Shown here piece by piece: positions 4,255-59,529 of a DNA stretch of 64,000 nucleotides. Made by a program: the position numbers and the translations under genes. The stretch's first letter is position 1. Each line of letters begins with the position of its first letter. Source of the stretch: Allacma fusca (Eukaryota; Arthropoda; Collembola; Symphypleona; Sminthuridae); NCBI GenBank assembly GCA_947179485.1, contig OX359250.1, positions 47,899,450-47,963,449 of the forward strand. The letters are read 5' to 3'. The notes below the pieces were generated by a model that made no database searches, was not told the origin of the DNA, and was given only the letters and a program-made list of their open reading frames with translations.

Positions 4255-5586
4255 CCCATCAAGAGTTTACATTTAATGGAACTCACGATTTTCAAATTCC
4301 TATCCAAACGTGATTACTTATATCCAAAAAATTACCTCCAGTCATATTTCCAACCTGGACATTTCTCTATTGAGTTTTTGCCATAAATTAGGCTTAGACA
4401 ATTTTTTATTTTGCATTAAATTTGAAAGCCAAAATTTTAAATAAAATATACCATTGAAATTTCTGAAACTTTTGACTTACAATTAGGGTACCATAAGCTT
4501 AGTTTCATTTTCCAAGGGAAAATGGTGAGAAAATTCCACCTTGGGCTTTGATGTGGGAGTTAAAATTAAAAGTAATAAAATTATTAGGTTGAATCGCAAC
4601 CAGTGCAAAATGAAAACTTTTATTGAAAAACTCATCTTCATGGTCTCCTCATGCAGCCATTAAAAAACATATTAACACATATTAAACATAGGAACACACA
4701 AATTATGTCTTTACGACTTGACGCCATACCAAATTTGTTTTGGTTTTATAGGCTAATCATTGTGATAAGTTGAAGTCACTGAAAGTTACGAAAACTAGTG
4801 AAATTAGACGCCGGATGAAAAAGGTTTTGTGATGGTCACTATGATGTGTGTACGATGCAGCTCAAGAAAAGAGATCGGTGAAAGTGGCGTCAAGTTTCAT
4901 GCTTACGTTAAATAGGATAACTGTACAAAGTCCTTTTTAGTTCAGTCCTAATTATGTGCATTCATTATTGCAAAATCTTCATTCTCATGTAGTATTATGA
5001 AACGGGGAAAAATCGCTGAGGAATTACTATTATTATGCACTGGAAGAACATAATGATTTCAGAATGAATTCAGTGGCAATGTAGCGTAATATTCAAGTTT
5101 GAACGACGCTGCATATATATAATTATATGTATATATATCTATACATATTACTTTGGATTGCTGATGCAAATAATGTTCGCGTGGATTCTAACTAAAAGCC
5201 AAGTGTTAAAATTTTTTTAAACAGTTTTCAAAAATTGTTTTCCAATAATTATTATCTTTGTTTAAGCATGTCTCACAGACTGTTCTTCAATACCAGTTGA
5301 ACAAAGCATTGTGATTTTTGATTCAACTTTTATTTTGTGTCGAGAGTATTTATTTACTATCGGATTATAAGAAAAGAATGGAATCATTTTTGGTGAGAGA
5401 AATAATAGTGTTATCAGATTTCCAGGGGTCTTATTTTTTTAAATCTAAAAATCCCTGTTTGCAAAACAAATTTCCTTGAAACACGCCAGCACATTTAAAA
5501 ATCCATGCCAAATATAAAGTCAACGAAAGTTGAAGTTTGAAGTTTAAAATTAGCAAATTTTGTGTTTATTTTTTTGGGTTTTATAG

Positions 5587-5755
5587 GTATATAAAGCCAA
5601 TTAACTACGTACCGGTTAAAAGTTTTCACGCCACTCTATTCATTTTGAAGGATCATCACATGTGTAATCAGCTAGCTTTTGCGGTTGTTACATGCAAACC
5701 ATATGCAGTTGGTTTTGCCGTAACTGATTGTGTGGTTGCAATGATGATGGGCAAC
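5587..5755 (+). other. Possible single exon around the motif at 5628 (weak)
   Basis: A pyrimidine-rich tract ending TTTTATAG (to 5586) could be a 3' splice site, and GTGAGG at 5756 a 5' splice site. Between them 56 codons are open, containing SFHATLFILKDHH around the ACGCCAC core. The product is not recognised and carries no known domain. Open stretches of this size are common by chance in this DNA. It is listed because the splice-like signals flank the best-preserved motif copy. Transcript data would decide. Confidence 0.15.
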
Positions 5756-7766
5756 GTGAGGTTTTGGCAAACAATAAATGGAGCAGATCGGGGTTCCTTG
5801 CGACAAAATATTAAATTAGATTAATTAGTTTATTAAAAAGTGATTTGTCAGATAGGCGTTTTTGTCCCATTCGAGTCTCATAGCAGAGTCCAATCATTTT
5901 TGGTTTCATTTTGCTAGTAATAATTTTAGCTTGCGTCATAATTGACGTAAATGTAAATTAGCTTATCGTTAGGACAAAGCATAAAAAGGTCAGGTTAAAA
6001 TTAATGATAAAATATATAGAACTTACGCTGGTATTTGCTGCCTCGAAGGCTCTCAACAGATAGGAAGTTTTTACAATTTATTCTAACAAGGGAGCATTGA
6101 CTTGGAAGCCAAACCAGAAAGATTAATATTGTGTAAACAGTGTTAAGCGTTTGTAACAAGTTCAAAGAAATTATTAATTAATTTCAGCATTTCGGTTCTG
6201 AAGAAATCATAATTTCCTAAGAATTGAGAGCAGACCGAAAAAGAATCTTACATAACAAACTAGAATGTAATTTCATAAGCTGCTTTTTCAGAAATGAGCT
6301 GGTTGAGCTCTTATTTTGGCTTACTACATCATACATGCGTACATTATTAATCTGGTTTTTGTTTTAATCAAATTTAAATAGACTCTGGTAAATAATTTCT
6401 GCCGTAATTGGAAAGCATCCATACTGTTGTCGTACTGATTTTTTAAAAGTAAAACAAATGAAAAGTGAAGTCAGAGTGTATTTTAATAAATTATGACTTT
6501 CACGCCATTTCAAATAAATATCCCAGAAGTTCATGAGCGGGCTTAAGTTAAGCTTTTTCCGTCAAATATTGCCCAAAACCAGATTTTCAAGAAAATTCTC
6601 TTAAACGGATTCTCTAACAAATTTTTAAACTTTTGAAAATCATAGTTTGGGAAAGACAGTAAGTTTAAATATTTAGTTCCTGGAAAATTCCAAAAGTTAT
6701 TTGATGGTGCACGTCAAAACCATCGAATATTGTAGATGCCAAAGAAAAATTGGAAAATATTGGTAGAATGAGATGTAGGACATGGATCATGAAAAAAATG
6801 AAATGTTTGTAACAAATTTATGAGCAAGTTCATGTTTGTTTGTTTTTTCATGTACATATTTACCTATACAGTCAAGGAATTATTTAAATGACGTATAGTT
6901 ATTTATTCTAAAAACATTTGAATGGGAAATTTTTAACTGCGTTAGAAGCCATAAATTCTAAAGGCGACCTTTGTTACAAGGATTAAAACTGTGTAAAGGT
7001 ATTAAAAATCCACGAAGTGTTAATAACAAAATATTTGACTTGAACGCCACTCTGTGTATCTTCCAGGACAAAACCGGTGATGTTAGCAAGTTGAAGTGTG
7101 GTTTGAAATTTTCTGTGATAATTGTCCATCAATCATATTTTGTTGGCACTTGGTGAATTAAAGCTCCTCTGAAGTACCCAATTGTAATAATATCCGAAAA
7201 TTATCACCGGATCATGAATTGCATAATTGATTCCAAATATTCAAGGGGCAAATGACTCTGGTCACCCTGTAAATTCAGATTAAACAAAATGAATTATAAA
7301 ATTAAGTTTTCCATCTCAATTGGAGAATTTCATTTTAAATATCGTTTTAAAATAGGAAGTGAGTTTTGGAAAAATTAATTTAATTAAAAATTTAGCTACA
7401 TATTGTAACTACGAATAAAGGGCTTTTTTAAAACCAATTCTGTGTTTTTTACTTTACCGAAAATAGTTCAATATCCTCAAATCGTGGGAAACTTACTTTT
7501 TGTTTTAATCAAGCTTAAATAGATGAGACATAATATCTCGAAGAATACAACGAATTATTATGAAAAAACTTTAGAAATCTGATTTTGACTTCTAATTTTA
7601 ATTGTTTACCAACATTACCCAAATAAACTTCGCAGACAGTTTCCAGCAGATCCATTGCAGTAAATTAGCAAGTTCGGGGAAAATACAGTACACAACTCCA
7701 CGTATTTTCCCTATGTACAGTTTGTCCATAATATCCTGCCACCATGCCTAGACCCCGTAAGGGAGT

Positions 7767-8299: not shown

Positions 8300-10861
8300 A
8301 AGGGAGTTACTTATAAAATATTTGAATCCCCCAGTTCGTAACAAATTGTTGTCTAGGTTTTATAAAATCCAGCAAATTGATCTATGCCGATATGTTTGGT
8401 CACATGGGCAAGAAGCGGTTAGTAAAGTTGGGTTTCTTTTATAATGTCGTAATATTATTCTCGTAGTTTTATTTATCCACGAAAGAATTCAAAAAGCATA
8501 ATTTCTTCTCTACAAAAAAGGTGACATTTTAGTCAAAGCAAATTTGGCTACCTTTTACAGACTTCCGCGAAGGTTTACGAATTGTTTTTGACAGACGGCA
8601 TATTTTAAAGCCATTGATCATCTTTTTAATGAACAATTATTAACCGAGATACAACATCAGGATGAAAATATTCTCCAGTTTTTTTAATTTTATAAACGCT
8701 TCCAAATCGTGCTTTCTCGTTATTTTAAAGATAAAAAAATGAGTTTGATTTTAAAATTTATTCAACAACTTCCTTCAAATACAATTTTTTCGGAGGGGAA
8801 CTACCAAGCCTCACATAATTATCTCTTGACAAAATAAAATTGCAAAATTTTGGGTGAAAAATTAAGAAATTTGAATGTATCTCCGAAATTTTGATAAGCT
8901 TTTCAAAATTTCCGTTAGCATTATTTTAGCTTGTAGGGCACATAACCAGCTTTCAAATAAAATCTCATTCAAAAGTTATTGGGTTTTTTTTTAAAGTTTC
9001 AAGTTGATTCGATTAGCCCTGGTGGGTTTGTCTCAGATGATTAAATTTGCTCGAAATAGGGGGATTCAGCTATGTTTAACTCATGTATGTGAGCTAGAGG
9101 GGTTGGGGTAAGTCATGACGGTCTCTCTGAACATTCTAATTAAGTTAAATAGATACCGTATACGAAATTTAATGAATGGCATTTTAAATAGGAATTTAAA
9201 AAAAGAAATTAAATTTAAGAAATTCAGATTTATTAAAACTTTGAGTGTTGAGGTGGCTTTTAAGAAGTTTCATTTGCACAAATTCCTGCTGGTGAGAAGG
9301 ATGGTCAGTTGATGTTTGTCTGAAATTCAAATTATTAGCTAGGTCAATAAGAAATCAAAAAAGATGATCTAAAACACATTTAGTAAAAATTGAGACATAT
9401 TTTACACTCTGGTGAAAACATTCAAATTTTTAAAACGATCAGAATTCGCAACAGATAAAGTACGCATTTAACCTAATGAGAAATTAATAATGGAAAGAAG
9501 GAATTTTTGAAATTGCGCCTTTCACGCCGCCTTAATTATTTTGAGTGCTACTCTGGCCCATTAGCAGCAGATCAACAAAAATGGGTGGTAAATTGTTCAC
9601 AAATATATTTTTCTGATACTGCCACGCGTAATTTCTGAAGACAATTTTAGGGAACTTTGCCCAAAGCATTTGTTTCAAATGTTTTTGAAGCATTTTAAAA
9701 TTTAAGTTTAAAAACTGAATCAAAAAAAAAGTTTTTGATTCATATTGAACAATATTTTCCCAAACCTCAAAAAAATTTAATCTCACAGGAACAGGTACGC
9801 AGAGTTCTCAGGAGGATAAGCATATCTTGAAGCTTAATAATTATTATTGTTACCTACAATTTACACATTTGGAATTGTTCGGCGATATTGATTCCATAAA
9901 TATTATTCTCGAGTTTATTTTTATTTATCCCGTCAAAATGATTTGGCCACGAAATTTAATTTATTTAAAATTTAATTGATGATTTGCGTTTCATCACTTG
10001 TACAATTAGTATATTTATATCCAAGTTTATAACAAAAATTTTTTTTATGTTAAAAATGTTTAAAATTATTATGTACAGTGTCGTAAGGCAAATACTATTG
10101 TGGTATCAGTGAAATAAATTATTTCTTTCTCTCTCTCTTCAGTCCAGGTTTCACTTCAGATTGTATAACAATTAAACTACTTTTGATTGAATCCTTTAAG
10201 ACCGAGAGAGGACATCCCCGTCAAACGTTGTTCCAATTTTTTACAATAATATCCACAATCTGGCTTTTATAGCTAAAACCACAAGCACTTGGAAGCTCCG
10301 TTCAGGTTGTGAGAATATTTGTCTTAAAATCAATGTTTTTGAATATCCCGTCAAACTTTACCTACGACAGGAATATATAATCACACGTACCCTGAAGGTG
10401 CCCATCACTCAGATCATTTCTTCTCAACAAAAATGTGACATTTTGGTAAAAATAAATTTCGATTCTTTGAAGATAAATGGCCATGAATTTGATTTTTGAA
10501 AATTTTTCAACAACCTCAATGACAGACAGTTATTTCTGAGAGGAAGTACCAAGTCTGGCTTAACAAAATCCTAGGAGCACATACATATGTGTTTGAGTTG
10601 AGTTTTGCTTACTTTGTCCCAATTGTGTTTTATATCCTGCCAATGAGGATTCGCAAACTGACTTTACCTCATGGAGTTATTTCCATTCATTGGAATTCCT
10701 TAATGCAAACTTCAACTTTGATGTATAGTATTTACAGTATTTATTTAGCATTCGATTACAAGATTTGAAAAGGAACGGGTTTTTGTGAAAAAAATAATAT
10801 CTAGTTGTCTTAGTTCATATATTTGAAAATCAAAAATATTTTTCGGTCGGATTTATAATGA
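8300..10861. repeat. Type I array segment, no gene seen
   Basis: AT-rich array sequence containing one motif copy (ACGCCG at 9524) and block e at about 10570-10680. No coding, RNA gene or younger element is recognised. Confidence 0.5.
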
Positions 10862-14063: not shown

Positions 14064-14110
14064 TTTATTTTGTTTTAGACGTGTTAAGTGCTCCGTGATA
14101 ACGAAACAAT

Positions 14111-14815: not shown

Positions 14816-15705
14816 TTTTAATGGTTATTATTGTATTGTAAAGCAATCAAATAAATCCCGTAGTTGTGAATACATTGTACATTTCTAATTGCGAATACTA
14901 CATATATAATATATTTATATATAAATGCATCAAAACACCAGCGCTGGCACGGCGCCGTTAAAAAGCATGGCTAACCTCTGGCAATCAGCGCCGGACCAGC
15001 TCTTAGAGCCGGAGATGATGGCCAGCGCTGTGCCGGTTATGTGCCAGCGGACAAATCGGTTACTCAGCCAGCGGTTACGTAGAGCGCTGGTTCAGTGCTG
15101 GCTCCGTAAAGTGTGGTTTCCTGGGTACCATTAGACGAGACATTATCCTTTTATAGCTTTTAAAGTGCAAATGCTGGTCCGGGCTAAAATTAAATAATTT
15201 TGTATTTATTTTTGAATCTTGAGGTGAATATATGTGGATGCATATATACTATAAATTCAATTAACTCCACACAGTTTCTAATCTCGCACGCCACTCTATC
15301 CATTTTCACGGATAATAATCGTTGTATTAATAAAGGTGGTAGAAATAATTTGCCAGCACGCGTGAGTTGCAAAATTGTATAATAGTTTCTACATTTTATT
15401 TCCGAAGGAAACAGAATTTCAGAACAATTACACAGTAGACCGAAAACGAATCTTTGATCATAAATTAGAAAGGTATTTTCTGGGGTTTTAATTTGCTTTA
15501 TCGAAAATGAGCTAGTTGGGCTTTGACTCCACTGTAGATTTTTTTCATCTGAATACCAGTTTTACAGTATGCCGCATTAGGAAAACTATTTATTTACAGG
15601 GGTAACACTTTAACGCATTTTATTAAAAAATTTAAATTTATTTCATTTTACCCTCTTAAAAGCTTGCAGTAAGGGAAATACGGGAATTTCCAGAAAGATT
15701 GGAAC

Positions 15706-16629: not shown

Positions 16630-16637
16630 ATTGGAAC

Positions 16638-17548: not shown

Positions 17549-17640
17549 ATTGGAACAATTCAACCTTAATTTTGTTTTAAAATAGTGAGCGAACTTTGGA
17601 AAGATTATTTAATTCAAAAAAATGAACGTTTTATTACTTA

Positions 17641-18458: not shown

Positions 18459-18461
18459 TTA

Positions 18462-21400
18462 GGAATAATTAACGGCTTTTTTGAAACAAATGAACGTTTT
18501 TTATTTTTTACCAACAATATTTCCAAATATAATATCAAACCCTGGTTTGGAAAATAATTTTGTTTAAATCAAGCGTAAATAGACGGTAAATAATTTCTAT
18601 CGTAATTTGAAATTTCTTCATAGTTTCTGTGGATATTAATTTTTTTGAAGGATTTTGATAAAGAATTGTTGAACCACTTCAGTTTTATAATTTAAACACA
18701 ATTTACGGGAAATAATAATTTTGTCAATGACTTCCTATTCAGCACAGTTGATTCAAATGAAACAAAGTTTCCAAAAATATGGAAAATTATTTGCTAATTG
18801 AAGCAGAAACTGGATATTTCCCACTATATTTTCTTACATGGACTGGACGGAGTAAATCTATTTTTGAGTCCCTGCACAACAGGTACCTAAATTCGTATTG
18901 GAAATTGTGGAAGTTGATATATATCCGAATATATTTATTTAAAGGTTCATGTTTTTATAAACGTGAATCAAAAAATTATTGAACTTATTTCCAGTTGCTT
19001 CTTATTTTCGCTTATATGTAAGTAATCTTATTTTTTATGGATATTATAGGGTTTCTAAATATATATTTTTCGCAGATTAATTCCCAATGAATTTACACAG
19101 ATTGCACAGAAAGTCAAAAATACCGTGAAACCTTATTACTATTACCAACAATTTACAAATTTTGAATTATTTGCCGACATTAGTTCTGCAGTATTAAAGT
19201 ATTCTCTTAATTTTTTTATTTATCCTGCCAAAATGTTTTGACTATGACATCAAAACTTTACTGAGTATTTCATTTCAAGATGTTCTGCAATTGAAATGCT
19301 TTTGAATGAACCAATTAAGACTGAGATAGGACATCATCGTCAAAAGTTCTTCCTATTTTTTCTCCAATGGTACTCAAAATCAGGCGGCGATACAAAAGTT
19401 ATTTCGATTTTCGGAAAGTAGATACTTCGAGTCCTCAAAATTAGTTTTTTAAAAATTTTGAATCCCAGTCAAAATGAATTAAAGATTTTTATAAATAATT
19501 ATTAAAAACTACGGCATAAGACGAGTCAGAGCTGAAGTAGTCGAAATATATGGATACAATTTCGATTAAGATTCAACTTAACGAATTCCAATTCCAATGT
19601 ACTTGTTTTGTAAAAATGTTTTATTCATTTACTTTTATTTCAAAACATACTACAGATAATTCTTTAATAGGATTTGCAAAATGAATATCCTGGGTTGAAA
19701 TGTGTGTGCAGATTAGGTTTAACTTACTTGCTTTATATCCTGTCTACGAGGATCTGTAAAATGACCAAATCGCCTGGATTTACTTATATTCAATGGAAGT
19801 CTCTAATCCCAAACTTGTGTCATTCGATGGAACGGAATATCATGGAGAGAATTTTACATTGGAGTAAATAAGATTGTCCAGATTACTTGCTTTACTATAT
19901 TCCAGGAATAAAATTCGAATGTTTTCCAATATCACCTCCGATTTTATATCCAACATTTCAAGCACTATTTAATGAAAAGAGATTGGACGCCACTTTATTT
20001 ATTACCCTTTTAATCTGCTGAACACTTTGTAGAGTTGCACGACAGCCAAATCTAAAATGTAGGTTTTTAAACATGTTGTACAATAATTATTTTATAATAT
20101 TGTAATTATCCAACCGGTTATTCTTTAACAACATTTGAAAAAATAGTAGACTCACAGTCCCAATAGATTTTGCAATGGGCTTTCGTTCAGCGTGAATTGT
20201 TTCGTATGCTGCAGGACCATGCTTCAGATCCTTAACGTAATGACCTATCAAATACCTCCTGAAATAAAGCTTCTGAGGCAAATTTTGCGCGATAATAAAA
20301 ACAAAATAATGAAATTCTTAAGAGAACCCGAGAACCCGGCTTTAAACTTGACTTAACCTGACCCATGTGATCTGAACTCTTGACCGAGATCAGTAAAGAA
20401 AATGTTTAAAAATCTAGTATTAAATTGTCTACAAACTGTCGGAACAATTATTTTTCACTCCGTTGTGGTCCGTAGAGGGCAACTTGGGAAGACGGAAATA
20501 AGAACTCATCAATGATGAAAATGATGAATGTACCAACAAATGTATGCCTAGTGTATGCTCCCTTGGATTACCTTACAAAGCAATAAGCGTAATACCTGCA
20601 ATAGATCTTTAAACTATTTTGGAAACTTGATTAGCTTTAACCCAAATTTTATGAGTTGCGAATAGTTGTTGTTGAAATTTGGAACTTTAAAGCAGTTTGT
20701 GAGAAATTTTAAGAATAAGCAATTAAAATTCGTTCAACTGAAAATTTTAGTTTAAAACCTTATTATAAAATCCCACCGTTAGTTCCATTTGCAAATATCT
20801 TCTCCTGCAGTTGAAATTCCCCAAACTGACTCTCCTCTTCTTACAGACCGTGCCCGAATTTCGGAACGCATGTACAGAACTGGAAAAGCTTACTTCTGAG
20901 CGACAACGTAATTTCCTTAAAGTTTTTTGGAAACAATATTTAAAATTTGAGCCCAAAATTCACCACGTTTTTCAAGAACATTACCAAAAACAACCCTGAC
21001 TAATCGCCGTGCTTAACCATCTGGAAACATAGTTTTTGAACTAGTGAAATAAACTTCTACTAACTAAATAAAAATCTGAAAAAGGATTTGCTAAATCATG
21101 AAGGAACTTGATATTTCCAACTACGTTTCCTTACAGGGGCTAGAGGGGTTAAATCAATTATTCACACCATCTGCAATTGAGAAGGCTAAAAAAATCAACC
21201 AAATATGAAACAGAAGCGTCAATTTTGCCAGTAAGTACAAGTTGAAATAAAAGATTGATTTATATGCCACTTGACATATTATTTGGGACGCAAAATGATA
21301 ACGTTTGGAGATCTGATTTGCGGTGAATGTATATTATCGTTCATTTGCAGGCAAATGATTTTGATCACATTGTAGAATCAGTTTAAAAGTAATGAATTAT

Positions 21401-23470
21401 AAAATTTCGTTTGCCAAGTGAATTAGAAAACGTCTGTTTAGCATTTAAAAATCGCTTCAAAATTGTAACGGACGTTTGGAAGTATTAATTAGAATTGTCA
21501 AATCAGGGTTTGTAAACTATCTTTTTATTTTAATCAAACTTAAATAGACTGTCATTAATTTCTGTTGTAACTTGGAATCTATCTGTCCTTGGAAATTAAT
21601 TCTCTGCTTCGAAAGGACATGTCCACTGATTTTTTGACCCTTCTGATTCTGACCTTCAAATTTGTTTAAAAAACGTTTCCTTCAGATTCATAACTTCAAA
21701 TCAACATTACTGTCGCCCAGTGTCATGGTGATGTTCCGAAACTAGAAACAACAAAGCACTTGTATTATTGTTTTACTTTAATGTCTGTGAAAATGCACAA
21801 CTTAATAATTTTCAATATTAATTTCTTGTCACATAAGCTAAGTAATGGAGTAGTACTAATTGACGATAAGAATAAGACTGACAGGAAGAGAACTGCTTAA
21901 GCTTTCGACGAGGACAGACACAAATATTGTACCTAAGATTTTGAATGTAAATTTGATTCACTGCTACTTGCAAAATTTGTTTCTCACAATAATTATATTG
22001 TTTGGTTAATAAATAATAGTTGAAAACACTCATCTCTTTATTGCTGCATGTTGAGGAATCCAGTCTAATTTGAGTTGAAAGTTTGTAGTTGCCATTTAGC
22101 GCTGCCCACGCATTGCCATTGACTTGATGTTGAGTTACGAAGGAGGAATAGTTGATCCTCAAGCCGCAACAATTACAGAGCCCTGTACTAGCTAGTATTC
22201 AAAATTTGAGAGCAAATAATGTAAAATTCAATGAAAATTGACAAATAAGAACAAAAATGAAACAATTGAAAAAAAAGTACTTGTTGGAGTGCTTTTTTAA
22301 AATTAAGCTTTAACGCCGTTTTCCCCATGTTTCATTTTTTTTACAAATATTCCGCAAATTAGTTCCGGAGAGATCTAAACTGGACTGCAAATGTAACGCT
22401 CCAGAAATGTACAGTTTTTCTCATATGTAATCCTATAATATTCTGCCACTATCTCTAGGCTCCGTAAGGGAGTAACTCATAAAATATTGCGAGTGTCATA
22501 AGATTTTTAAATCAAATTTTAAAAATTGACTACACAATTCAAACCTTTTTTAAGAGATTTTCCGAAAACAATCCTGCCCCATAGCTCCACTTCCTTAACT
22601 CCTAGAATCGTAATTTTTGAGCACACGGGATGTAATCAATTTTTCAAAAATTTGGAAAAGGATTTGCTAAAGCACTGAGGGAACTTATAGTTCCCACTAC
22701 CTTTCTTTACATGGGCTAAACGGGACAAATCTGTTGTTGAGTCCCTGTACAGTTGGTTCCTCAATTTGCATTAGAAATGTCAGGGTTTGAAATATATCCA
22801 CCTATATTTATAGGTCCATGTTTTTATCACTGCATCAAAAATACACCTTGGACAAAAATGACCCCGACTGAGCGGGTGTTTGTCAAGAAGTAAAAGTTTA
22901 AAAAAATGGTTAATTTATAAGCCACTTAAAATTTTATTTGTGATGGGCTCTGAATAAGTATATATAAACATAATTCACACAGAACTAATACATGTAAAAA
23001 TTGTATAAGAATACATGACTTCACAGAACCTTAATTAAATTAGCATATAATAAATTGAGCTATATTGCCCTGTTGCCTTAAAAAACTTCAAATTTGAACT
23101 CCGCAGGAAGGAATATGCAGGGTTTTGAATCGTAAGAATTCATTTCAGAACTTGCAGCAATAAATAATACTTTTACTATTCCTGTCACGCTTGACAACCT
23201 ATTATTTGTGATTTTGAAAATTGAAAACTAATTGGTCAACACTAGTGACAAACTAATATATGCCATTACCTGTAATTACAGTGGTGTAAACAACCCAACT
23301 GAACACTGTACTTTACTAGCTTTGTTTTCCTAAAGTCATTGGTTTTACTAAAATTCAAAAATGAAATTCGAATGTTTTCCAATCAAAATGGCTCTAATCA
23401 ATTTCAAATCAAATTTCTAGTTCCAAGAGGCAGGGGTCGAATTTATGTGGGAAGAAGGGATAAATCTTCC
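18462..23470. repeat. Type I array segment, no gene seen
   Basis: Holds blocks a (18556, 21526), c (18805, 21105, 22683), e (19690), d (20452), f (20740) and b (22440), and motif copies at 19987 and 22313. An open frame of 114 codons on the minus strand (21818-22162) and one of 62 codons at 20811-20999 resemble no known protein. The latter overlaps block f, which recurs at 55390 with its reading frame not preserved. Confidence 0.5.
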
Positions 23471-24517: not shown

Positions 24518-24720
24518 ATTGTCAAATCTGTTGACCTTTTTAGGTAGGGATTTTCGAAATTGTTGAGGTGTATTACGGAATTTATTTTGTCAACAGGGAG
24601 CTCAAAACTTGCTTCGAACATGTACATCACAACTAGCAGGGAAAATCCAAAAATACTTCCAAGGAGATTTACAAAAATCCAACCCCTGACAAGAGGCACT
24701 ATTTTAACAGAGCATCGACG
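24518..24720. repeat. Dispersed repeat R (AGGGATTTT...GTTGAGG), copy
   Basis: AGGTAGGGATTTTCGAAATT, then GTTGAGG, and AAGGAGATTTACAAAAATCC with AACCCCTGACAAG. The same sequence of phrases occurs at 36180-36480 and three times in tandem at 59820-60400. The motif ACGCCAC (24718) lies at its right edge. Confidence 0.55.
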
Positions 24721-24822
24721 CCACCTTATACATTTCGCCTAAAATCTCACACAATTTAGTAGTATAAAATGATTAAAAATTAAAATGACTAGACCAACTT
24801 TATCCTTGTATATACATACCTG

Positions 24823-36000: not shown

Positions 36001-36179
36001 AATTTTAAAATATTTTTATGCCGACGCCACTGCACTTATTTTAAGGATTTCTTATATCCGTGATTTGCATGGTTGGCAGTTCTCTCAAATTTTTCTTGAC
36101 GATATCAAAACCAGAGGAAATTTTTTTTATCGGTACTTCAACCCATCGTCCAGGAATGACACGCTGGTCGGACTTTCGT

Positions 36180-39700: not shown

Positions 39701-40039
39701 TTCGCTCAAAATAATTTGCACTTGAACCATTATATACCTAATTATAGTGAACGTGGAATATATCATTACACAACAGAATTCATAGAATGAGGTTTAAACA
39801 CAAGTATGTTATTTTGAAATTAAATGAAGCATTGTATTTTGAACTTAAATGTTGTTGCCTAATTAGTAGCTTGTATTCTGTATTTTGGTATTTTGATTTT
39901 TTAATAAATAGTATTTTCCATGGTATTTGTCACAGGCAAATTAATCTGCATTGCTGGAATTGCACAAATTATTTTTCTTCATTCTTTCACACATTTTTTG
40001 AATTTCGATGCTGCACAAAATCTTTTCAGTACTCATGAC

Positions 40040-41267: not shown

Positions 41268-42641
41268 CTCATGACCGCACAGTGAAAACATTTTTCTTTG
41301 CATTTAAATAGACAAATATTTTTTATTGAACAGTACAAGATTTTTATACTTTTTCAATCTAAATAACACTGTGCTTAAAATATTTCAAATAGCAGTAGCG
41401 CCAAAATTTGAAGTACCTACAACACGAGTATAAAAGGTAGATTGTTTTTTCTATGCTTAAAGCCAACTATTGACAATTCACACTTATTTTGTAATAATTT
41501 TGAATTTTAAGCGATTGTCATTTGTAAACCAAATTTTCCGTTAAATGACCATTTCTTTAAATAAATATCAAAGTTTTGCTGCATTTTCAATTCAACACGG
41601 ATCTATTTTAGCAGCAATTGTTTTAGAAATGCCTGTAAAATACGTAAAATGAAATGTGTTGCTGAAGGTTTTAATTAAAATAAAATAAATTGCTGGTTAT
41701 AATTGTCCGTCGGTATTTTTTTAAGTATTTCAAAGTAACGCCACACAAGTCATTCTGTCGACAAATGGCGGTGAATTTTGACAATTGATATTTGATTTCA
41801 ACGTTTGCAACTGACGTTGAGGTAAAAATCTAATTATAAATAATGTGGTCAACAGTATAATGTGCTCAAGCGTTAAACGTCCCTTGCAAGGGATAATACT
41901 AATTGCCAGTATTTGTCAATTAAAAAATATAATGGCAAAATTAAGTAAGTTCATATTACTTTGGGAAAATTTACTCAAAATGTTAAGTATGGAAGTTTAA
42001 AGACTTGAACGGGAGTCTGGACGTATTTTTCAATAGCTGAAACCTAGTTAGGACAACGTTCACAACTTTAATATATTAAAAAAATTAAAATCAATCCCAC
42101 ATCCGATTTTTTGTCAAAATCTGAAAATTCGGTTTCTAAATCCACAGGTACGCTTGGTAATATAAACATTCCGATTTTTACGCCTTTAGAATATCTTAAC
42201 CACGGAACTTGGCTTTTCTAGAATAGTCTAAAAATCTTGTTATCCGCAATCGAAAATATTTTCCTCATGCGGTGAAGTGAACAGTCGAACAAAATTTTGT
42301 AGCCCAATTATTTTATGACGAAATCACAATCACATCTCCCAAATCAATAGGATTTTAAATTACGATTTTTTAAAAATCCTTAACGAAGACGAAAAATGAA
42401 TCTAAAAAGCAATATAAAATTGTTGAATTTCCACGCTCCACAAAATATTTATCCAACTTCATAAGCAATCCAAAATATCAAATTCAAGGGCAAAAAGGCA
42501 AAATCGGCAGGTTAATTGGTGTTATATTTGGTTTATAAAGGTAAAAGAAGGTTGTTCAAAGCGAATGTATAATATAATATAGTTACTACCATTTCCCTAA
42601 AAACCTTTATTTCCCAAGTCAAGTGAGAACTCAAACCATTA

Positions 42642-44032
42642 AGGGAGTGTGCACATATTACGTTTCATTTTTTCACCATTTTTGGACCCTACCCCCCCTA
42701 TCGTCATCCTAACGTCATTATTCCTTGACCCCCCCTCCCCTGGAAACGTCATCGAAGCAAAAACAAGTTTAATCCGCAGCATTTTTAGGGCGGCGTCAGC
42801 CCCCTTATAAGATAGTGTTGTCCGTGATGTCTGGTAGTTTTCCCCCGAAACTACTAGACCAAACCGTTCAAAGGTTTAGTTATCATTGGATAGGCCGAAA
42901 ACTCGTGTGAGTTTGTTACTGATTGTAACAGGTCAGCGTGTTCTTGTGTAAAAAAAACTACTTTCCTCCGAAAATGCTCGACCCATTTTGTTCAATATTG
43001 ATGAGTGTGTTAATGGTTGAAATCGGTCCACGTGTTCGTACTTAAACAAAATAAACTAAATTTTGAAGGAAGAAAAAAAATAATTAAGGTAAACGAATGA
43101 ATACGGGTTGGAAAACTTGAGATCGCGGTCATTTTATTTTGGTTTCGCCTTCGCGGACTAAAGGGAAGTTGCAATTATTACTGTTTTTGCAAAGAGCCCA
43201 TTGTTATTATAAAATTTACATTTAACGTCAATAATATCGGCAAATTCGCTCTGTATCGAGTCAGCCACATTTACAATAACTTCATCGGTGTTTCCGACGA
43301 ATACTCCGCTTGACATGCTGTGGAAAATTGCATTTGATTACTTTGAACAACAGATTCAGTATTTTTCGAGATGCTTTCTAGCAAATTTCTATGAGCAACT
43401 ATTTTGTGGGGTTCATATGCAATGTTGATAACAAAATAGTAATTTATTGCACGCATGGTGGGTTTGGCTTTCAAGGTTGTCTTGAATGCTGGGGCAATGG
43501 TAGACAGGGGATAATTTCCAGACATTTAACATGCCATTTGACAACAAACCGCCAAAGTAGGCAGATGAATCGTCCGGGTTTTCAAATAGGAACTCAAGAA
43601 AAATCCTGCTTAAAGAGCACCGGAACCTGGAGAAACTTCTATATTAAAAATTTGTCCAAGTTACATCGCCAAGGGCGACAGCAACTGAGATCATGAAAAC
43701 AAATTATTTGCAAAAGTGAAATTGACGGACGTGATTTTGTAGCCATTCTTGCGTAAGCCATGAGTTTTCGGAATGCTCATAGTTGTCAGACATTTGGACT
43801 AATGTACGGCTTTCGTATGTTTATAAAATGTATCAGTGGTCTTTCACCAATAAAAGTTTGTTACTAAAAACGCTATCCTAACAATTATCCGTGTCTTTCC
43901 TTACATTTTTGTGAAAATGGGTGAAACGTCATCAGTAAGATTACCCCCACCCCCCCTTGGTATACACAAAATCATCTGCTTCAAGACCCCCTCCCTCCCC
44001 CAAAAATGAAACGTAATATGTGCACACTCCCT
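42642..44032. mobile_element. DNA element with 31-base terminal inverted repeats
   Basis: The ends are identical for 31 bases, beginning AGGGAGTGTGCACATATTAC. Next to both ends lie C-rich runs (CCTACCCCCCCTATC and ACCCCCACCCCCCCTTGG) and CGTCAT words. Neither TA, TTAA nor an 8-base duplication matches exactly at the flanks (CCATTA before, AACCTGG after). The middle holds overlapping open frames on both strands (43271-43525 minus, 43391-43696 plus) that match nothing I know. The superfamily is unassigned. Confidence 0.65.
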
Positions 44033-45095: not shown

Positions 45096-45578
45096 GTTAA
45101 ATGATTTAGTGACGTTTTTTTAGCAGGAACAGAGATCCTGAGAACAAAATAGAGATTTGCTATTGTGCATAGGAGCCACATTACGATTTAAGAATGGGCT
45201 ATAAAACTTAAATTTCAAAATAAAAACATTTTTTCCTTTGACGCCACTGAGAGTTTTTTTGAGTAGGAACCTCTCGTCCCTTACAAGATAAATGCACTGC
45301 TCTTTCAAAGGAATACTACAACAATAATCATAACAATTATACGTTTATGGAGGATCTTACCAAATTAATGGCAAAGAGTGCTCCAGCTGAATCTTGTATA
45401 TGAGGAATTATTGAAAATGTTGAGAATAAAAATAGAGCGAGACTTGTCATAATTTGTTTTGTAGACTCGGGGATATCAGTTTTTTTAAATAATGAATTTA
45501 GTCAATTTGTAGGATAGGAGGTTTTCTAAAATCAGGCAAAAAAAATTCTGCAATGATAGTATTATAAATAATTTATAA

Positions 45579-50255: not shown

Positions 50256-52950
50256 ATAATTCAAAAACGATATTTGATTGTTTTGCAATACAAATCCCAA
50301 TTTTTATGCTCCAAGAGGTACAACTTCGAAAAGATCTTCCACGCCACTTTATGTGTATCACAGACGTTGTGATGCAAGCTTAACTAAAAACTTAGCGAAC
50401 ATTGCTTTACAGCCATATACTAGTTTCTTTTTGTTTTAATATATCCTACAGATAATTCGTTAAAAAAATTTGAACAATTAAACTCCTGGGTTGACATGTG
50501 TGTGCAAATTAGGTTTAACTTATTTGCTTATATCCTGCCAATGAGAATATACAATTGAACCAAATCTCCTGGAACTGCACTAGATATTTAATCTATTTTC
50601 AAAATTTGTTTAGCTTTAATACAAATTATATGCATTGCAAATAATTGTCGTTGAAATTTATAACTTCTTCCCAAAATTAATGCATTTTTTGAGCTAGTGG
50701 GATTAAATAAATTTTGTAAATATTTGGAAAAGGATTAACTAGTAAATGAAGGGGGAACTGGATATTTCGGGCTACCCTTCCGTACATGGAATAGAGGGGG
50801 AAATCTATTTTTTAGTCCCTGAATTGGTCCGTCAATTCGTATTAGAAATTGTGGGGGTTGATGTTTGAACGTCCACATAAATATAAATCATATCCTTGTT
50901 TGTATTACAGCATCAAAGAATATGGGAACCAAAGGACGAATCATGAAAGGGTAAAAGTCAGAAAGCTAAAGTCGAAATAAATTATTAATTTACACCCCAT
51001 TTGAAATATTAGTGGGGATTGAGCAACCTGTAGTTTTCCATAGATTTTCTTCACACGTGGGTAACACGTGAAGTAAAATAAACAAGGAATGAGCTAATGA
51101 AGTCTAACGTAATTACAAAAGTGACCATGATTTCTGATTCAAACTTAAATTTCTATTCAAAATTGAATTCCAATTCAAACTTAAATTTCTATTCAAAATT
51201 GAATTCCAAATCAAACTACGCTACTCATAAATCAGAATATGCAAAAGGTGAGCTAATAAATAGTAGAGCTTCGTTATATGTGACCATAGAATCTGCGCAA
51301 AATATAATATGGAGTTTAAAATTTTACCAAGCCCATTATCTCATTAGCGTGAGTCTGACCATACAAGTAACAAAATATATTTGTATTGGATAAAATCGGA
51401 TCATTCGTTTCGCCTCAGGAAATTAAATAGGTCTCATTTAAATACTTGTTAATATATTCTGCTCCGTCAGAGACGCTGAAAGAGGTACACATTTTTTATG
51501 GTCCTTGTTACATTATCGACCCACTGGAGTCGGGCAACAATCACTTTGCACCTTCTTGCCCTTAAAGCTGGCCAGAAATGTTTTTGAAAGTAGCAATTTA
51601 AAAATTTGACGTAGAGGGAATCTGTGTAAACATTTTGACTCCTATGGAGAGTTTTTCAAGTTCTGTTGCAAATCTTAGCTCATGCAATTGAATTTCCACA
51701 AACTTTCCGCTTCTTTGTTCTGGATTTGTTTTGAGGGGGAAGTACCGAGTTTCTTTTAGTTCCTTCTTGGCGGAAAAATTATTGAAATTTTGGTCGAAAA
51801 ATTGGTGAATTTGAATATGCCGCCAGAATTTTAACAAGGATTTGGAAATTTCAACGGACGTAATTTTATTTTGTAGACCTTTAACAAATTTCCATGTGCT
51901 ACTATAGATCGACATTTGCTTATGCGACCAAAGTCATTCCAGGTTATTAAAATTACTCCACGGCCTCATTTTTTTAAATTTTCAAATCCTGTCGACCTGA
52001 ATTAGACTTGTTTATAAATTATTTTAAATTTATGACATACGAGTAATTGTCCTGAGTGGGTAGGAACCAGGTCTTAGACTATTTTCTTTTAGACAAAATT
52101 TTTTTTTTCAAAAAATCCCAGCTAAAATTTTCTAAATCAGTAAACTAATACAAAGACTTGAGTCGGGATTACTATGGCGACGCAATCGAAGTATTCCACT
52201 TGGTTCTACGGTAAGTACATCAGAAACTTATAGGTGATTCGAATTCATAGGTTGAAGAAACATTTTGATAGGCCAAAAATTCAAGTCAAAATTTGATTCT
52301 GGATTACCCAGACAGTTCCATGACAGTACAAATTTAATCTTTCGGGACGTATCAAAAATGTTTAAGAAACCTCAGTTATATATTTATATATAATATAAAA
52401 AAAATCAGATACGTATGTTTAAGATGTAGCGTGTGTATGTTAATCGCCACTTAAAATATTATTTGTACTAGACTTCGCTAGGTTCACATCAGTTACGTGA
52501 TATTTCTTACCAACGATCAATTTCACGTTTCTGAAAATAGAGACCAACAAAATACTTCCTCTAAAATCCCTAAAATTTTGTATAAAAGAGTGTTAAAACA
52601 TTTTCTGAAACTAATTTCGCGTGAGAACATTCTAAAGAGAATCCGACAGTAAACTTCAGTTTTCCTGACCCCTGCGAACTTAAAACTCGACCTAAGTTAG
52701 TTCGATTTCTTAATTCGAGAAATGCTGGAATAATTATTACAATTACTACAAATGGGGAAATTATAATTATTAAAATATTTATTTTTCACTCCCTTATGTG
52801 GGCTAGAGGGGGAGGAAGGTCAAATGATGATGGTCACCCTGTACATTCAAATAAAACAAAAAAATGCATCAAAAGATAAATTATTTGTATTTAAATAGGA
52901 AATTTTGGGCTCAGTATTTATAATTTTAGTATTTAAAAATAACATTTTAG

Positions 52951-54498: not shown

Positions 54499-54506
54499 CA
54501 TTTTAG

Positions 54507-56784
54507 TAATCATTAACAATTCAGGGAGTCACTAAAATCTATGATGAAATGATGTAGAGCATTGTTAGAAATAGAAAAAACTGGGCCATAATATTCTTCA
54601 TTCCGCAAATTGATTTAATATTTAGTTGACCAGACAAGCAGCAACTCAAATTAATGGTTTATTCAGAATATTAAAAAACATTTGAAATGCATTCAGTAGA
54701 AATTGGGACATTCAACAGATATTTGGACAATCTGGTAAACACATTCTAATTTAAATTTTTATTACAATTTCGGGAATAACAATAATATACGAAGTAGAAC
54801 CAATAAAAACGGAATTAAGGAAACAAGTGTTTTTTAATTATAATTTCCACGCCGTATTAATTCTTTTTGACGGTAATCACTCCATGTAATGCAGTTAATA
54901 AAATTTCTTCAGAATAAATCATGAAAGGAGATCACGATACAAATGCATACGTTCAATATCATTAAAATTCAATCGTAAATGAGGATGTTCCAGCAATATT
55001 TTTTGTTTGTATTTGTATTATAGAAATAAAATATAATTTTAGAATTGCACCGATAGCATTTGTAAAATATTTCAGCATTGACGCCACACAACATATTGTG
55101 TAAGGGAAATCGCTGTTAAGCCAATGAGGTTAAAAAAGTCTCGGGATTGAAAAATGGAGGTGAGAAATCGTCACAGTTGACAATATGAGGCAACGTGTTG
55201 TGAGGTGTTCGTCCCTTTTGTTTATCCCAAAGAGCAATTTAAGCCCGAGACCTTGCACTAGAACTGTAAACTAATTTTAAAATTTGATGAACTTTAATAC
55301 GAATTTTAATAATTGAAAGTAAATTGTTGTCGAAATTTGGAATTCTACCAGCGTTAATGCATTTTTGACAAATTGTAGAAAAAAATGGTTCAAATTAGTT
55401 CAACTGAGAATTTGTCTTTAAAATTTTATCGCAAAATCCACTCGTTACTTTTTCAAGCCCTTTTGCACATCTTTGCTCCTGTAGTTGAATTTCCACAACC
55501 TGACTCTTTTTACGCACTGTGTCAAAAATTCTTAACGTATGTTCAGAACTCTAAAGTCTCTCTTCTGAACGACAACGAGATTTCCTACAAAATTAAGGGT
55601 CGGAAGTTTTTTGTAACATCTTAAATTTGAGTAAACAAGTCAAACTTTAAAGACGTTTTCCAAAAACAACCCTGAATTAAAACTCGAAGTTCTTTACCCC
55701 TGGACCCATAATTTTTGAGGTATTGGTTTTGAATAAATTTCAATACAACAAAATTAAAAATTATTTGACCGATCATGGGGGAACCGGATGTTTCCTACTA
55801 AGCTTCCTGACATAGGCCAAAGGAGTAAATCAATTTCTCTGCACTCAAAGTCTCTGTACAATTGGTTCCTGAATTTGGAGCTAGAAATTGCAGGTTTTTT
55901 TTTGAAAAATATATTAATTAGAAGGATGTGTATTGGCAGTAAGTAAAAGTTGAAATAAATGCTGCTTTATAAGCTACTCGAAATTTTATTTACGAGTTAG
56001 GTATATTTAAACTAAAGATAACTTCTTCCTCAGTGAAATGACTTAAATGCTTTAGGAACAAATAGTCAGTGTCACTCTGTACATTCAGATTAAACAAAAT
56101 GAATGAAATAATTCCGTCTTGGACTGGGAACGGTTGGAAAAATAATTAAATTTAATAAAATTTGTTGCATGATTATGCACAATTACTTACAAGGCTTCGC
56201 GAGCAAATACTGATGTAAAGATACAACACAAAAATATTTAAAACTGACAAGAATTCCTAGTGTTTCTACAATCTTTCTTTTAAAACCCCGTAATGTCTTC
56301 TATAATAGAGTTGAGTGTTTACAATTTTAAAACCAAATTAATATTTTTAAATGTTTAAAGCTTTTTGAAATCTTTTGTTAATACAAAACCACTGTTTTTG
56401 CAAACCACTGGCGCTAAATAATGAATTAGGACAATTAAATGTTTTAGATAATTAACCTTAAAACTTTCTTCAAACTAAATGGGCTTGAACTAGTCGAAAC
56501 AACTCCAATGTTTACTGTAGAGGAGCAATAATGGTCATAGTGTAATTATGTGTTTTTGCCAAACTGCCAAATATCCTGCCTAAGATGTCCAAAATGCAGG
56601 GCATTTTCAAGGTAATACATAGGTATCATAGGTGTTATAGTTCCATTAGGATGTCTAGTAATGCAAAAATTATGACGAGGCAGAATTTTTCCTAGCTTGT
56701 AATTGCTGTGATGTAAATCATAGAAATGTCATCATGTTGAATCGTTTACAGTAATTCTTTTTAAAGTACCTGATTGGCTACAGG
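54507..56784. repeat. Type I array segment, no gene seen
   Basis: Contains motif copies 54849 and 55081, block f (55390) and block c (55790). The open frame 55385-55624 overlaps block f. Its relative at 20740-20999 reads in a different way, so I do not call it a gene. Confidence 0.5.
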
Positions 56785-57510: not shown

Positions 57511-57707
57511 CGTGTGCAAATATTTGGGCTGACACAAATAAAAAATTAATTTTAACACATTGTAACATTTAAATAGGAAATGTGAAGAATTCAGTAGTTA
57601 AATATTTGAAGTTCGAGGCCACTTTTTAGATTTTTCATATTCGCCTAATGCTATTTATAGGAAGATTATACAGTGTGGATAACGTTCAGAATATCAAGCT
57701 AAGCTGG

Positions 57708-58010
57708 GTCTAGGTCTTCTCACAACTCAAGTTATCACGTTATTTGAACTTAAAGTTGACCCTTAAATTGAATTTTCAACTCAATTTTGGCCTCATTGTA
57801 TTTGACCAGCTGTTAAATCGATTTGTTAATTAAAAGTCACTTAAAGGAAACCAACTTATACAGCTTGTAGCTTCAATATTTGAAGTTGACAATTTCAAAG
57901 AGTAACATCTGCACAAATTGAAGTTGAATTCAAATCGACTTGAAGTTGATTTAAATTGAGGCGAACAATTTAACGTGCCATTAAATACTTCTGCTTAATA
58001 TAAAAATATA
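57708..58010. repeat. Truncated relative of the 23471 hAT-like element
   Basis: TCACAACTCAAGTTATCACG, TTATTTGAAC and AACGTGCCATTA-ATACT match the left 300 bases of the element at 23471. The right part is missing. Confidence 0.6.
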
Positions 58011-59529
58011 ATGGAAAACAAATCTTCAAATTTTGTTCGGCAAATTGATGACTTCATCCAAAGACCATTTGTTCTGAGATGGTGGCGGCAAATCACAGGT
58101 GATTTTATCTTGAAGAAAACTAATGTCGATATTTGAGTCGAAAATAGGGAAAGTTGTTCATTGCGCTAATAATTTAACTAGAATTTATAAATTTGAAATT
58201 CAGGTTGACAAAATTTACAGCAAATATTTTTTCAAAAAGCTATTTTAGGATAAATGAATTATGTGAGACTTAAGTTATTAGAGTTTTTGATATTACTTCA
58301 GACCTTCAAAATTGATATTTTCAAAATTTGGAACTCCGGACTGAATAAATTGTTTAACAAATTATTTATTTACTCCATCATTAGATAATTAATCCCGAGG
58401 GGAGCACGTGTCAGATTATTCTTTCTGGACAAAAAATAGGTAATGTCAAAAACCTTGTCAAAATTTAAGATTTTTTCAAAAATTCTAGATCAAAAATTTA
58501 CAATCCCTAAATAAAAATAAAAATTTGGTCGGAAAGTCAAGATATATTGATGTTAAAAGTAGACGCCACTTGAAATGTAATTGATGATAGCGTGCGAATA
58601 TCTACTACTTGTGTTGCTTGTGTAAACAACTTTGTAGTGGTCACATCGGTGCTTGAAAGCAAAACAATTGCCCATTGGGATTGAATATAAGAGTTCCTAA
58701 GATAGTTATACAGCAGAAGACTATTTAAATATAACGCTTCGACGCCACATGATACATTGAGCCTTGAAAAACTTAAAGGTCGTTTGAATTTTCTATAAGT
58801 ATTTAATGGTGTTTGTTGTTTGAATAAACAAATTGAACACTGACACAGGTAAATAACTAAAACGTATGGAAAAGGACAACGGAGGGGAAATAAATATTGC
58901 ACTCTATTGCTGTGAAAACTTGTCCTTTGTGTTTCCCCACAAGAAGTAAACTTCAGTTTTCCTGACCCCTGCGACCTTAACTCTCAACCTAAGTTAGTGA
59001 AGTAAATTCGAGAAAGTCTGGAATAATTACATTTGCTAAAATTGGGGAAATTATAATTAATAAATAATTATTTTTCACTCCCATATGTGGGCTATAGGGG
59101 GAGGAAGTCAAATGCTGATGGTCACTCTGTGCATGCAAATAAAGCAAAACAAATGCATCAGAAGATAAATTAATTGTATTTAAATTTTGGGTTCAGTAAT
59201 TAAAATTTTAGTATTTAAAAATATTATTTTAGTAATCAATTAAAAATTCAGGGAGTCACTGCAACATCTCATGAAATGATGTAGAGAATTGCTAGAAATA
59301 CGAAAAACTGGAGCTTCGAGGCCACTTATTTATAATATTTTTCATCCGCAAGCAGACTTAAATTATATTTTGACAATACAAGATAAGCAGCAACCGAAAT
59401 TGATAGTTTATTTAGAATATTAAACAACATCTGAAATGCATTGAGTAGAAATTGGGACATTCAACAGGTATTCGAAGAATCTGGTAAACACATTCGAATT
59501 TAAAATCTAATCACACTAGTAGTAGCAAG

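What the first reader, a model, noticed from the sequence alone, without database searches (positions are those of the whole stretch)
4721..59323. About 30 copies of a directional ACGCC(A/G) motif across 55 kb
Seen: 13 ACGCCAC on the + strand against about one expected and two on the other strand, plus some 15 close variants. They share an upstream AT-rich tract with AAATATTT and TT(C/T/G)(G/C/A) just before the core, then lose similarity to each other within 5-15 bases. The surrounding array is so diverged that only a few blocks align, yet this core persists, at several non-homologous places within one unit. Established comparison: nematode piRNA loci consist of hundreds of tiny transcription units, each with a short upstream motif, clustered in AT-rich DNA; the core there is CTGTTTCA, not this. 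Inference: possible promoter core of a small-RNA cluster, an exon relic reading (F/L/I)(D/H/N)A(T/V/A), or a chromosome-organising site. I cannot choose between these.
Basis: partly seen in the sequence, partly recalled or inferred. Interest (0 to 1): 0.8.

Follow-up and report, generated by a model that had tools for sequence, protein, structure and literature searches.

The report
Candidate tiny-RNA gene arrays in springtail
A springtail chromosome end carries a long array of short, mostly same-facing DNA signals, many followed at a fixed distance by a start-like signal inside a stretch that changes unusually fast; this is the layout of the tiny RNA genes that worms use in genome defence, and it would matter because that design is known from nematodes, but no RNA has yet been measured here.

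Summary
The motif is real and far above chance. A weight matrix trained on 35 window sites finds 96 sites in 260 kb (89 on one strand; 4 in the reversed sequence), 58 of them outside the window. A strict pattern gives 189 hits genome-wide against 5 in the control, mostly, where listed, on chromosome 1 and X2.

(1) A second motif, AGNT, starts 44-47 nt after the core in 58 of 131 sites (7.3 expected), on both chromosomes. (2) Between duplicated units the motif and outer flanks align, but +20 to +68 has turned over: 0.51 identity against 0.64 in flanks. Frame preservation, splice signals, hairpins and known RNA families were not found, and 17 snRNA upstreams lack the motif.

Best reading: each site is a promoter for one tiny RNA whose sequence evolves fast, laid out like nematode piRNA loci but with an unrelated core, so probably convergent. 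Transcription, RNA length and Piwi binding are inferred. Rivals: processing signal of a long precursor, Pol III units, a break-repair site.

The parts
4701..4789 (+). unit, core A at 4721; motif about -20..+28, variable block +20..+68; AGNT T at 4771
   Evidence: PWM 19.6 bits; AGNT
5608..5696 (+). unit, core A at 5628; AGNT T at 5677
   Evidence: PWM 26.5
6482..6570 (+). unit, core A at 6502; AGNT T at 6549
   Evidence: PWM 25.2
7024..7112 (+). unit, core A at 7044; AGNT T at 7092; +20..+88 has no second match in the genome at E <= 1
   Evidence: PWM 26.7
9504..9592 (+). unit, core A at 9524; AGNT T at 9572
   Evidence: PWM 31.3
15268..15356 (+). unit, core A at 15288; AGNT T at 15337
   Evidence: PWM 27.4
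15506..15594 (+). unit, core A at 15526; no AGNT
   Evidence: PWM 24.1
19967..20055 (+). unit, core A at 19987; AGNT T at 20036
   Evidence: PWM 24.3
21244..21332 (+). unit, core A at 21264; AGNT T at 21312
   Evidence: PWM 24.5
22293..22381 (+). unit, core A at 22313; no AGNT
   Evidence: PWM 21.6
22899..22987 (+). unit, core A at 22919; no AGNT
   Evidence: PWM 17.2
24698..24786 (+). unit, core A at 24718; no AGNT
   Evidence: PWM 29.4
29343..29431 (+). unit, core A at 29363; AGNT T at 29411
   Evidence: PWM 33.7
29926..30014 (+). unit, core A at 29946; AGNT T at 29995
   Evidence: PWM 31.1
33374..33462 (+). unit, core A at 33394; AGNT T at 33441
   Evidence: PWM 34.6
34339..34427 (+). unit, core position (here G) at 34359; no AGNT
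   Evidence: PWM 24.2
34876..34964 (+). unit, core A at 34896; no AGNT
   Evidence: PWM 25.3
35534..35622 (+). unit, core A at 35554; AGNT T at 35602
   Evidence: PWM 21.6
36004..36092 (+). unit, core A at 36024; no AGNT
   Evidence: PWM 31.4
37078..37166 (+). unit, core A at 37098; AGNT T at 37146
   Evidence: PWM 28.7
38091..38179 (+). unit, core A at 38111; no AGNT
   Evidence: PWM 23.9
38403..38491 (+). unit, core A at 38423; no AGNT
   Evidence: PWM 22.1
38774..38862 (+). unit, core A at 38794; no AGNT
   Evidence: PWM 25.0
39292..39380 (+). unit, core A at 39312; no AGNT
   Evidence: PWM 27.4
39988..40076 (+). unit, core A at 40008; block interrupted at +32 by a repeat insertion; AGNT T at 40057 lies inside the insert's end
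   Evidence: PWM 24.8
40040..41267 (.). inserted repeat, inverted ends CAGAGCTGCGCTC..., 8-bp target duplication CTCATGAC at 40032-40039 and 41268-41275 (hAT-like by recalled convention)
   Evidence: sequence, and unit homology resuming at about 41291; its end matches 39 further places
41718..41806 (+). unit, core A at 41738; no AGNT
   Evidence: PWM 20.7
42074..42162 (+). weak unit, core A at 42094; no AGNT
   Evidence: PWM 12.4
42413..42501 (+). unit, core A at 42433; no AGNT
   Evidence: PWM 32.8
42728..42816 (-). only minus-strand site at 12 bits, core A at 42796
   Evidence: PWM 15.7
45221..45309 (+). unit, core A at 45241; AGNT T at 45289
   Evidence: PWM 28.1
50321..50409 (+). unit, core A at 50341; no AGNT
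   Evidence: PWM 22.6
50974..51062 (+). unit, core A at 50994; no AGNT
   Evidence: PWM 24.4
52424..52512 (+). weak unit, core position (here T) at 52444; AGNT T at 52494
   Evidence: PWM 14.6
54829..54917 (+). unit, core A at 54849; AGNT T at 54896
   Evidence: PWM 25.9
55061..55149 (+). unit, core A at 55081; AGNT T at 55130
   Evidence: PWM 32.5
57596..57684 (+). unit, core A at 57616; AGNT T at 57666
   Evidence: PWM 25.3
58543..58631 (+). unit, core A at 58563; no AGNT
   Evidence: PWM 25.0
58722..58810 (+). unit, core A at 58742; no AGNT
   Evidence: PWM 31.5

Best explanation
Each site is a small promoter. A DNA-binding factor reads the directional motif (about -20 to +20, core TT(C/G)ACGCC(A/G)(C/T)...TATTTT) and places RNA polymerase at a fixed distance downstream, at the AGNT signal 44-50 nt after the core A. 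The product is one very short RNA that starts at the T or two bases before it. The encoded sequence is free to change, and does so faster than the duplicated DNA around it, so the array yields a large and changing set of guides, most simply for a Piwi-type Argonaute. Shown: motif, orientation, clustering, fixed-distance second motif, fast turnover of the block, no sign of coding or hairpins. Inferred: factor binding, transcription, start point, RNA length, Piwi loading and any silencing of transposons.
For: 96 sites (89 on +) in 260 kb against 4 in the reversed sequence; 58 of the 96 lie outside the window that trained the matrix, 52 of these on +. 189 strict-pattern hits against 5 for the reversed pattern; a looser pattern gives 1590 against 442, which with its local sensitivity (33 hits in the 260 kb against 96 matrix sites) suggests about 3,000 units (rough). 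For the TTYG half of the pattern the list is complete: 52 of 76 hits on C1, 12 on C9, 5 on C8, 7 on C41, C60 and C62, none elsewhere, so none on C10 or C12. From C1:46.67 to 47.99 Mb all 47 listed hits are on minus (24, 23). An unsupervised search over +30..+75 finds nAGnTn with 0.49 of its positional weight at three neighbouring offsets; six other windows of the same size give 0.20-0.25. AGNT starting at +44..+47: 58 of 131 sites, 7.3 expected, largest background window 14; C9 35 of 83 (4.6 expected), C1 23 of 48 (2.8 expected); among sites that did not train the matrix, 17 of 49 on C9 and 23 of 48 on C1. At +45..+49 identity between paralogues is within 0.02 of what composition predicts, so AGNT is largely not inherited but recurs, which points to constraint. 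In 20 independent pairs the block is 0.511 identical against 0.643 and 0.645 in the flanks, lower than the mean flank in 18 of 20. Only 13 of 131 blocks have a non-self match in the held DNA, against 59-87 of 131 for four equal-sized flank segments. Piwi-domain genes are present: 48 exon-level matches, 47 over the cut-off; another springtail, Folsomia candida, is reported with 19 Piwi-like homologues (PMC12147562, passage). Geometry of nematode piRNA loci: motif peak 42 nt from the RNA (PMC6436959, passages); core about 40 nt upstream (PMC3597512, passages).
Against: No RNA data of any kind. The core does not resemble the nematode CTGTTTCA, and unlike the nematode case it does not resemble the genome's snRNA upstreams: matrix scores are negative in all 17 fetched. 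AGNT is missing in 73 of 131 sites (18 of 37 in the window), which must then be dead or start elsewhere. The total likelihood of the unsupervised AGNT model (105) is hardly above that of AT-rich models found in two upstream windows (102 and 101); only its sharp position sets it apart. The nematode initiator has Y where AGNT has A. The spacer between motif and AGNT turns over as fast as the presumed RNA, which the promoter model does not by itself explain. Long same-strand runs also fit a single long precursor; elsewhere on C1 the strand switches between and within runs. C. elegans loci show no prominent strand bias (PMC3597512).
Confidence: 0.62

Rival explanations
1. The array is read as one or a few long same-strand precursors, as in fly uni-strand piRNA clusters, and the motif acts in the RNA as a processing signal that sets the 5' end of a guide RNA about 45 nt downstream.
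For: Long same-strand runs; fixed spacing from motif to AGNT.
Against: The motif has an AT-rich upstream part and a TATTTT tract about 30 nt before AGNT, which look like promoter DNA; fly-type clusters are not known to carry one motif per RNA (recalled). Tandem duplication alone would also give one strand.
Confidence: 0.15
2. The units are Pol III genes of the U6 type (upstream element plus TATA) making short non-coding RNAs unrelated to Piwi.
For: A TATTTT tract lies at about -33 to -28 relative to AGNT.
Against: No clustered TTTT terminator up to about +150; no Rfam family and no tRNA in the window; no folding excess; the two U6 upstreams fetched lack the motif.
Confidence: 0.07
3. The motif marks a site of programmed breakage, recombination or insertion; the block changes because it is cut and repaired, and transcription is not the point.
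For: The spacer and the presumed RNA turn over alike; a repeat has inserted at +32 of unit 40008; males of globular springtails lose X chromosomes in development and a set of autosomes in spermatogenesis (PMC9630974, passages).
Against: A break site gives no reason for AGNT starting at +44..+47 in unrelated blocks on two chromosomes.
Confidence: 0.08
4. The copies are relics of a duplicated gene (microexons, with the core near a branch point) or of a transposon.
For: TTSAC fits a branch point and AG is mildly enriched at +21 (24 of 136); many units share flanks.
Against: AG is absent there in 112 of 136 sites and no GT follows at one fixed place in most; length changes are not in threes (31 of 88); the TTYG hits are absent from C10 and C12, so not a freely dispersing element.
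Confidence: 0.05

Closest known systems
Ruby-motif (type I) piRNA loci of Caenorhabditis and other nematodes
   Same: Many short units in AT-rich Mb-scale clusters; directional core motif; initiator-like motif ending in T about 40-46 nt downstream; unrelated product sequences.
   Different: Core ACGCC(A/G)(C/T), not CTGTTTCA; initiator AGNT rather than YRNT; long same-strand runs; no likeness to the genome's snRNA upstreams; block turns over faster than flanks; host is a springtail.
Uni-strand piRNA clusters of insects (flamenco type; recalled)
   Same: Long same-strand domains in repeat-rich DNA of an arthropod.
   Different: Those are read as long precursors and carry no motif per RNA as far as recalled.
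snRNA promoters with a proximal sequence element
   Same: Upstream element about 50-60 bp before the start.
   Different: In this genome the likely element reads CCGTTTG by eye in 7 of 17 upstreams and differs from the array motif.

Membership tests
Nematode Ruby-motif piRNA loci | Core CTGTTTCA / GTTTC | tested here: not met
   Core is TTSACGCCRY
Nematode Ruby-motif piRNA loci | Core about 40 nt upstream of the RNA's 5' U, with a YRNT initiator | tested here: inconclusive
   AGNT with T at +47..+50 in 58 of 131 sites; R, N and T fit, Y does not; no RNA 5' ends known
Nematode Ruby-motif piRNA loci | Mb-scale clusters on few chromosomes | tested here: met
   C10 and C12 have none of the 76 TTYG hits
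Nematode Ruby-motif piRNA loci | Motif related to the SNAPc element of snRNA genes | tested here: not met
   Negative scores in 17 of 17 U1, U2, U6 upstreams, sense strand; 8 of the 10 U2 upstreams may not be true promoters
Nematode Ruby-motif piRNA loci | Capped precursor of about 28 nt, mature RNA bound by Piwi | not testable with these tools
   No RNA data; Piwi-domain genes present
Uni-strand piRNA cluster | Long precursor transcript | not testable with these tools
   Only strand coherence seen
Protein-coding exon array | Reading frame kept and splice sites at fixed places | tested here: not met
   31 of 88 length changes in threes
Dispersed transposon | Copies spread over all chromosomes in both orientations | tested here: not met
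   89 of 96 local sites on one strand
Hairpin RNA (microRNA) cluster | Stable hairpin beside each motif | tested here: not met
   Mean fold z between -0.20 and 0.27 in five segments, 100 of 131 sites, base shuffles

The most novel reading that the evidence does not exclude
Springtails have independently invented promoter-per-RNA piRNA genes, some thousands of them, whose coding block is actively replaced while promoter and flanks are kept, and new transposons landing in a block, as at 40008, become new guides: a promoter array that acquires specificities from invaders.
Probability: 0.2. Interest if true: 0.96.

Novelty: new variant of a known kind. Interest (0 to 1): 0.85.

Why it matters
Piwi guides in arthropods are thought to come from long precursors (recalled); one promoter per RNA is described for nematodes (PMC3597512, passages). 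A second, unrelated invention of that design in a springtail would show which features are essential (geometry, initiator, clustering) and which are accidents (the core sequence, descent from snRNA promoters). The block also gives a direct measure of how fast guide sequences turn over against the duplicated DNA beside them. The reading predicts the 5' end of many RNAs to within a few bases from sequence alone, so one small-RNA library decides it.

Tried and rejected
Coding microexons were taken seriously because TT(C/G)AC fits a branch point and TATTTTTCAG a 3' splice site in some chromosome-1 copies; counts of AG, GT and AGGT by offset, the base before T in AGNT, and the length changes spoke against it (the 88 pairs share sites, so they are not independent). 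snRNA-type elements were tested against 5 U1, 10 U2 and 2 U6 upstreams: no likeness; 8 of the 10 U2 upstreams are related repeat-like DNA without CCGTTTG by eye, so probably not true promoters. Spliced-leader RNA: no match, but the search rang in no control genome either, so it says nothing. Hairpins, Rfam and tRNA (both on the window only): nothing. Transposon matches of blocks: one block tested has no second copy, one carries a repeat insertion; too few to generalise, and 40008 was chosen because it already had repeat-like matches.

Flanking homology links 123 of 136 sites into one group at a loose cut and leaves 74 groups at a strict one, so how many ancestral units there were is open. Searches returned nothing because of invalid blastn settings; they were repeated as and are not results. 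The block profile uses 58 spanning pairs of 330 core-covering alignments; pairs share sites, so the test rests on 20 independent pairs. Dropped before counts: loci L034 and L041 (they overlap L033 and L040) and sites within 200 bases of a stretch end, and five near-duplicate sites between 136 and 131.
Full report
Where it is. The window is G000:C9:47899450-47963449. C9 is 48,059,808 bases and ends in TTAGG repeats, the arthropod telomere (the taxon link is recalled). Contig lengths of 81.89, 66.08, 58.81 and 48.06 Mb and a total of 392.74 Mb in 91 contigs match the published Allacma fusca assembly qeAllFusc8.1 (chromosome 1 81.9, 3 66.08, 4 58.81, X2 48.07, total 392.8 Mb in 95 scaffolds; PMC10427803, passages). 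Small differences (91 against 95, 48.06 against 48.07) remain. The other genome paper found with that total, Tenthredo mesomela, has other chromosome sizes. So C9 is taken as X2 and C1 as chromosome 1, by length, not by a name in the data.

The observation. ACGCCAC: 13 on + and 2 on - in the window, 0.96 expected. Growing a weight matrix over both strands from these sites gave 35 plus-strand and 7 minus-strand sites. A matrix of -25..+25 from the 35 plus sites gives 38 in the window (37 on +) and 96 in 260 kb (89 on +) at 12 bits, against 4 in the same sequence reversed. Since 35 of the window sites trained it, the 58 sites outside (52 on +) are the independent evidence. Median spacing of the 80 plus sites on C9 at 14 bits is 1,277 bp. 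The consensus is AAATATTTgagcTT(T/C)(C/G)ACGCC(A/G)(C/T)nnnAnATATTTT, informative from about -20 to +19.

Genome scale. TTYSACGCCRYNNNANNTATTT: 60 plus and 129 minus hits; the pattern read backwards gives 5. Its two halves were listed apart: all 76 of the TTYG half and 100 of 113 of the TTYC half (the last 13 places are not shown). Listed places fall on C1 (0.16-11.2 and 45.9-48.9 Mb), C9 (24.4-24.6 and 45.3-47.9 Mb), C8 (9 places) and small contigs C41, C60 and C62. Runs on one strand are long in places (47 of 47 on minus at C1:46.67-47.99 Mb) and shorter and mixed in others, such as C1:5.7-9.1 Mb. The 15-base pattern gives 1590 against 442. Bare ACGCCAC gives 16,623 against 13,064, which would suggest more units; I trust the longer pattern more, and both depend on the reversed pattern being a fair control.

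A second motif at a fixed distance. With 86 C9 sites and 50 C1 sites the column profile showed A, G and T enriched near +46 to +49. An unsupervised search over +30..+75 in 131 non-redundant sites found (A/C)AGNT with its first base at +44..+46. Control: the same search in six other windows finds AT-rich words of similar total likelihood in two of them (102 and 101 against 105) but without a preferred position (share of the top three offsets 0.20-0.25 against 0.49). Counting AGNT directly: 58 of 131 start at +44..+47, 7.3 expected, p 4e-32; both chromosomes show it separately, and so do sites that did not train the matrix, 17 of 49 on C9 and 23 of 48 on C1. In the window 19 of 37 plus-strand units have it. 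In nematodes the motif lies 42 nt from the RNA and transcription starts two bases before it (PMC6436959, passages). Here the T lies 41-44 nt after the last base of ACGCCAC. Between paralogues these positions are no more alike than composition predicts, within 0.02, so the motif recurs in unrelated blocks.

A block that turns over. Of 330 alignments covering both cores, 202 end between +9 and +60; the median reach is 33 bases downstream and 129.5 upstream. In the 58 that run through, identity is 0.65-0.73 upstream, 0.88 in the core, 0.78 at +7..+20, 0.46-0.56 in the bins from +20 to +68, and 0.56-0.72 beyond, 0.60 or more in all but one bin. In ten pairs with flanks of 0.75 or more, flanks average 0.79 and the block 0.61. 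As an independent view, a 50-bp block segment finds a non-self match in the held DNA for 13 of 131 sites; four flank segments of equal size for 82, 87, 59 and 82. The matrix was trained on -25..+25, so conservation there is partly selected; the contrast of block with outer flanks is not.

What it is not. Not coding: length changes in threes in 31 of 88 pairs; downstream stops as frequent in the proposed frame as in the others, though upstream stops are somewhat fewer (91 against 109 and 108 of 131). Not spliced microexons. Not hairpins, known RNA families or tRNAs. Not the snRNA element: all 17 upstreams score below zero.

An insertion that fits the idea. Unit 40008 carries a 1,228-bp insert at +32 with inverted ends and an 8-bp duplication CTCATGAC; its end matches 39 other places at 94% identity or more among the 40 best candidates scored. 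The AGNT of this unit lies inside the insert, so a transcript from this promoter would begin in the repeat's end. The C. elegans literature notes transposons landing downstream of the motif and giving new guides (PMC3597512, passage citing others). One case is an anecdote.

Argonautes. The Piwi-domain family has 48 exon-level matches (47 over the cut-off) on C1, C5, C8, C10, C12 and C13. Genes were not assembled or assigned to the Piwi or Ago branch. Folsomia candida, another springtail, is reported with 19 Piwi-like homologues (PMC12147562, passage).

What is in print. Searches of open PMC text showed no report of one-promoter-per-piRNA units in an arthropod and no springtail piRNA study among the listed titles; several lists were only the top of thousands (15 of 6,209, 12 of 6,490, 10 of 1,330), and subscription papers and preprints were not searchable. 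A dust-mite study looked for shared motifs in its siRNA master loci and found none like the Ruby motif (PMC5805368, passage). An annelid study mentions the nematode design only as background (PMC8915122, passages). The honey bee paper has 'promoter motif' only in a software sentence (PMC8978429, passages). The A. fusca paper on paternal genome elimination has no mention of small RNA or piRNA in its main text (PMC9630974, term search).

Verdict. Works like nematode piRNA loci, probability about 0.6. Membership: not a Ruby-motif locus, since the core and the snRNA link were tested and not met. The spacer's fast turnover and the 73 sites without AGNT remain unexplained.

Noticed in passing
window 47-994: Open frame with a DDE_1 domain (Pfam E 3e-20), a pogo/Tigger-like transposase end (label recalled) just outside the array.
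   Followed up: partly
window 2206-3781, minus strand: Broken frames, one with a reverse-transcriptase match (RVT_1, E 4e-11 in 2750-3088), probably a non-LTR element relic.
   Followed up: partly
window 40040-41267: 1,228-bp repeat with inverted ends and an 8-bp target duplication, inserted in a unit's variable block; its end is repeated over the genome.
   Followed up: yes
window 15703-17551: 1.85-kb near-palindrome, 79.7% between arms.
   Followed up: no
window 36602-36783: Perfect 91-bp palindrome with no spacer; could be natural or an assembly artefact.
   Followed up: no
window 53067-54399: Two minisatellites with a 41-bp period.
   Followed up: no
G000:C12:45483221-45614001: 21 of 31 U2-like matches lie here, many at about 4.5- or 6.7-kb spacing; the upstreams fetched are related DNA, so perhaps U2-derived tandem repeats.
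   Followed up: partly
L051, L052, L061-L065: Shared CCGTTTG about 55-60 bp before U1 and two U2 genes, a candidate springtail snRNA proximal element (by eye).
   Followed up: no
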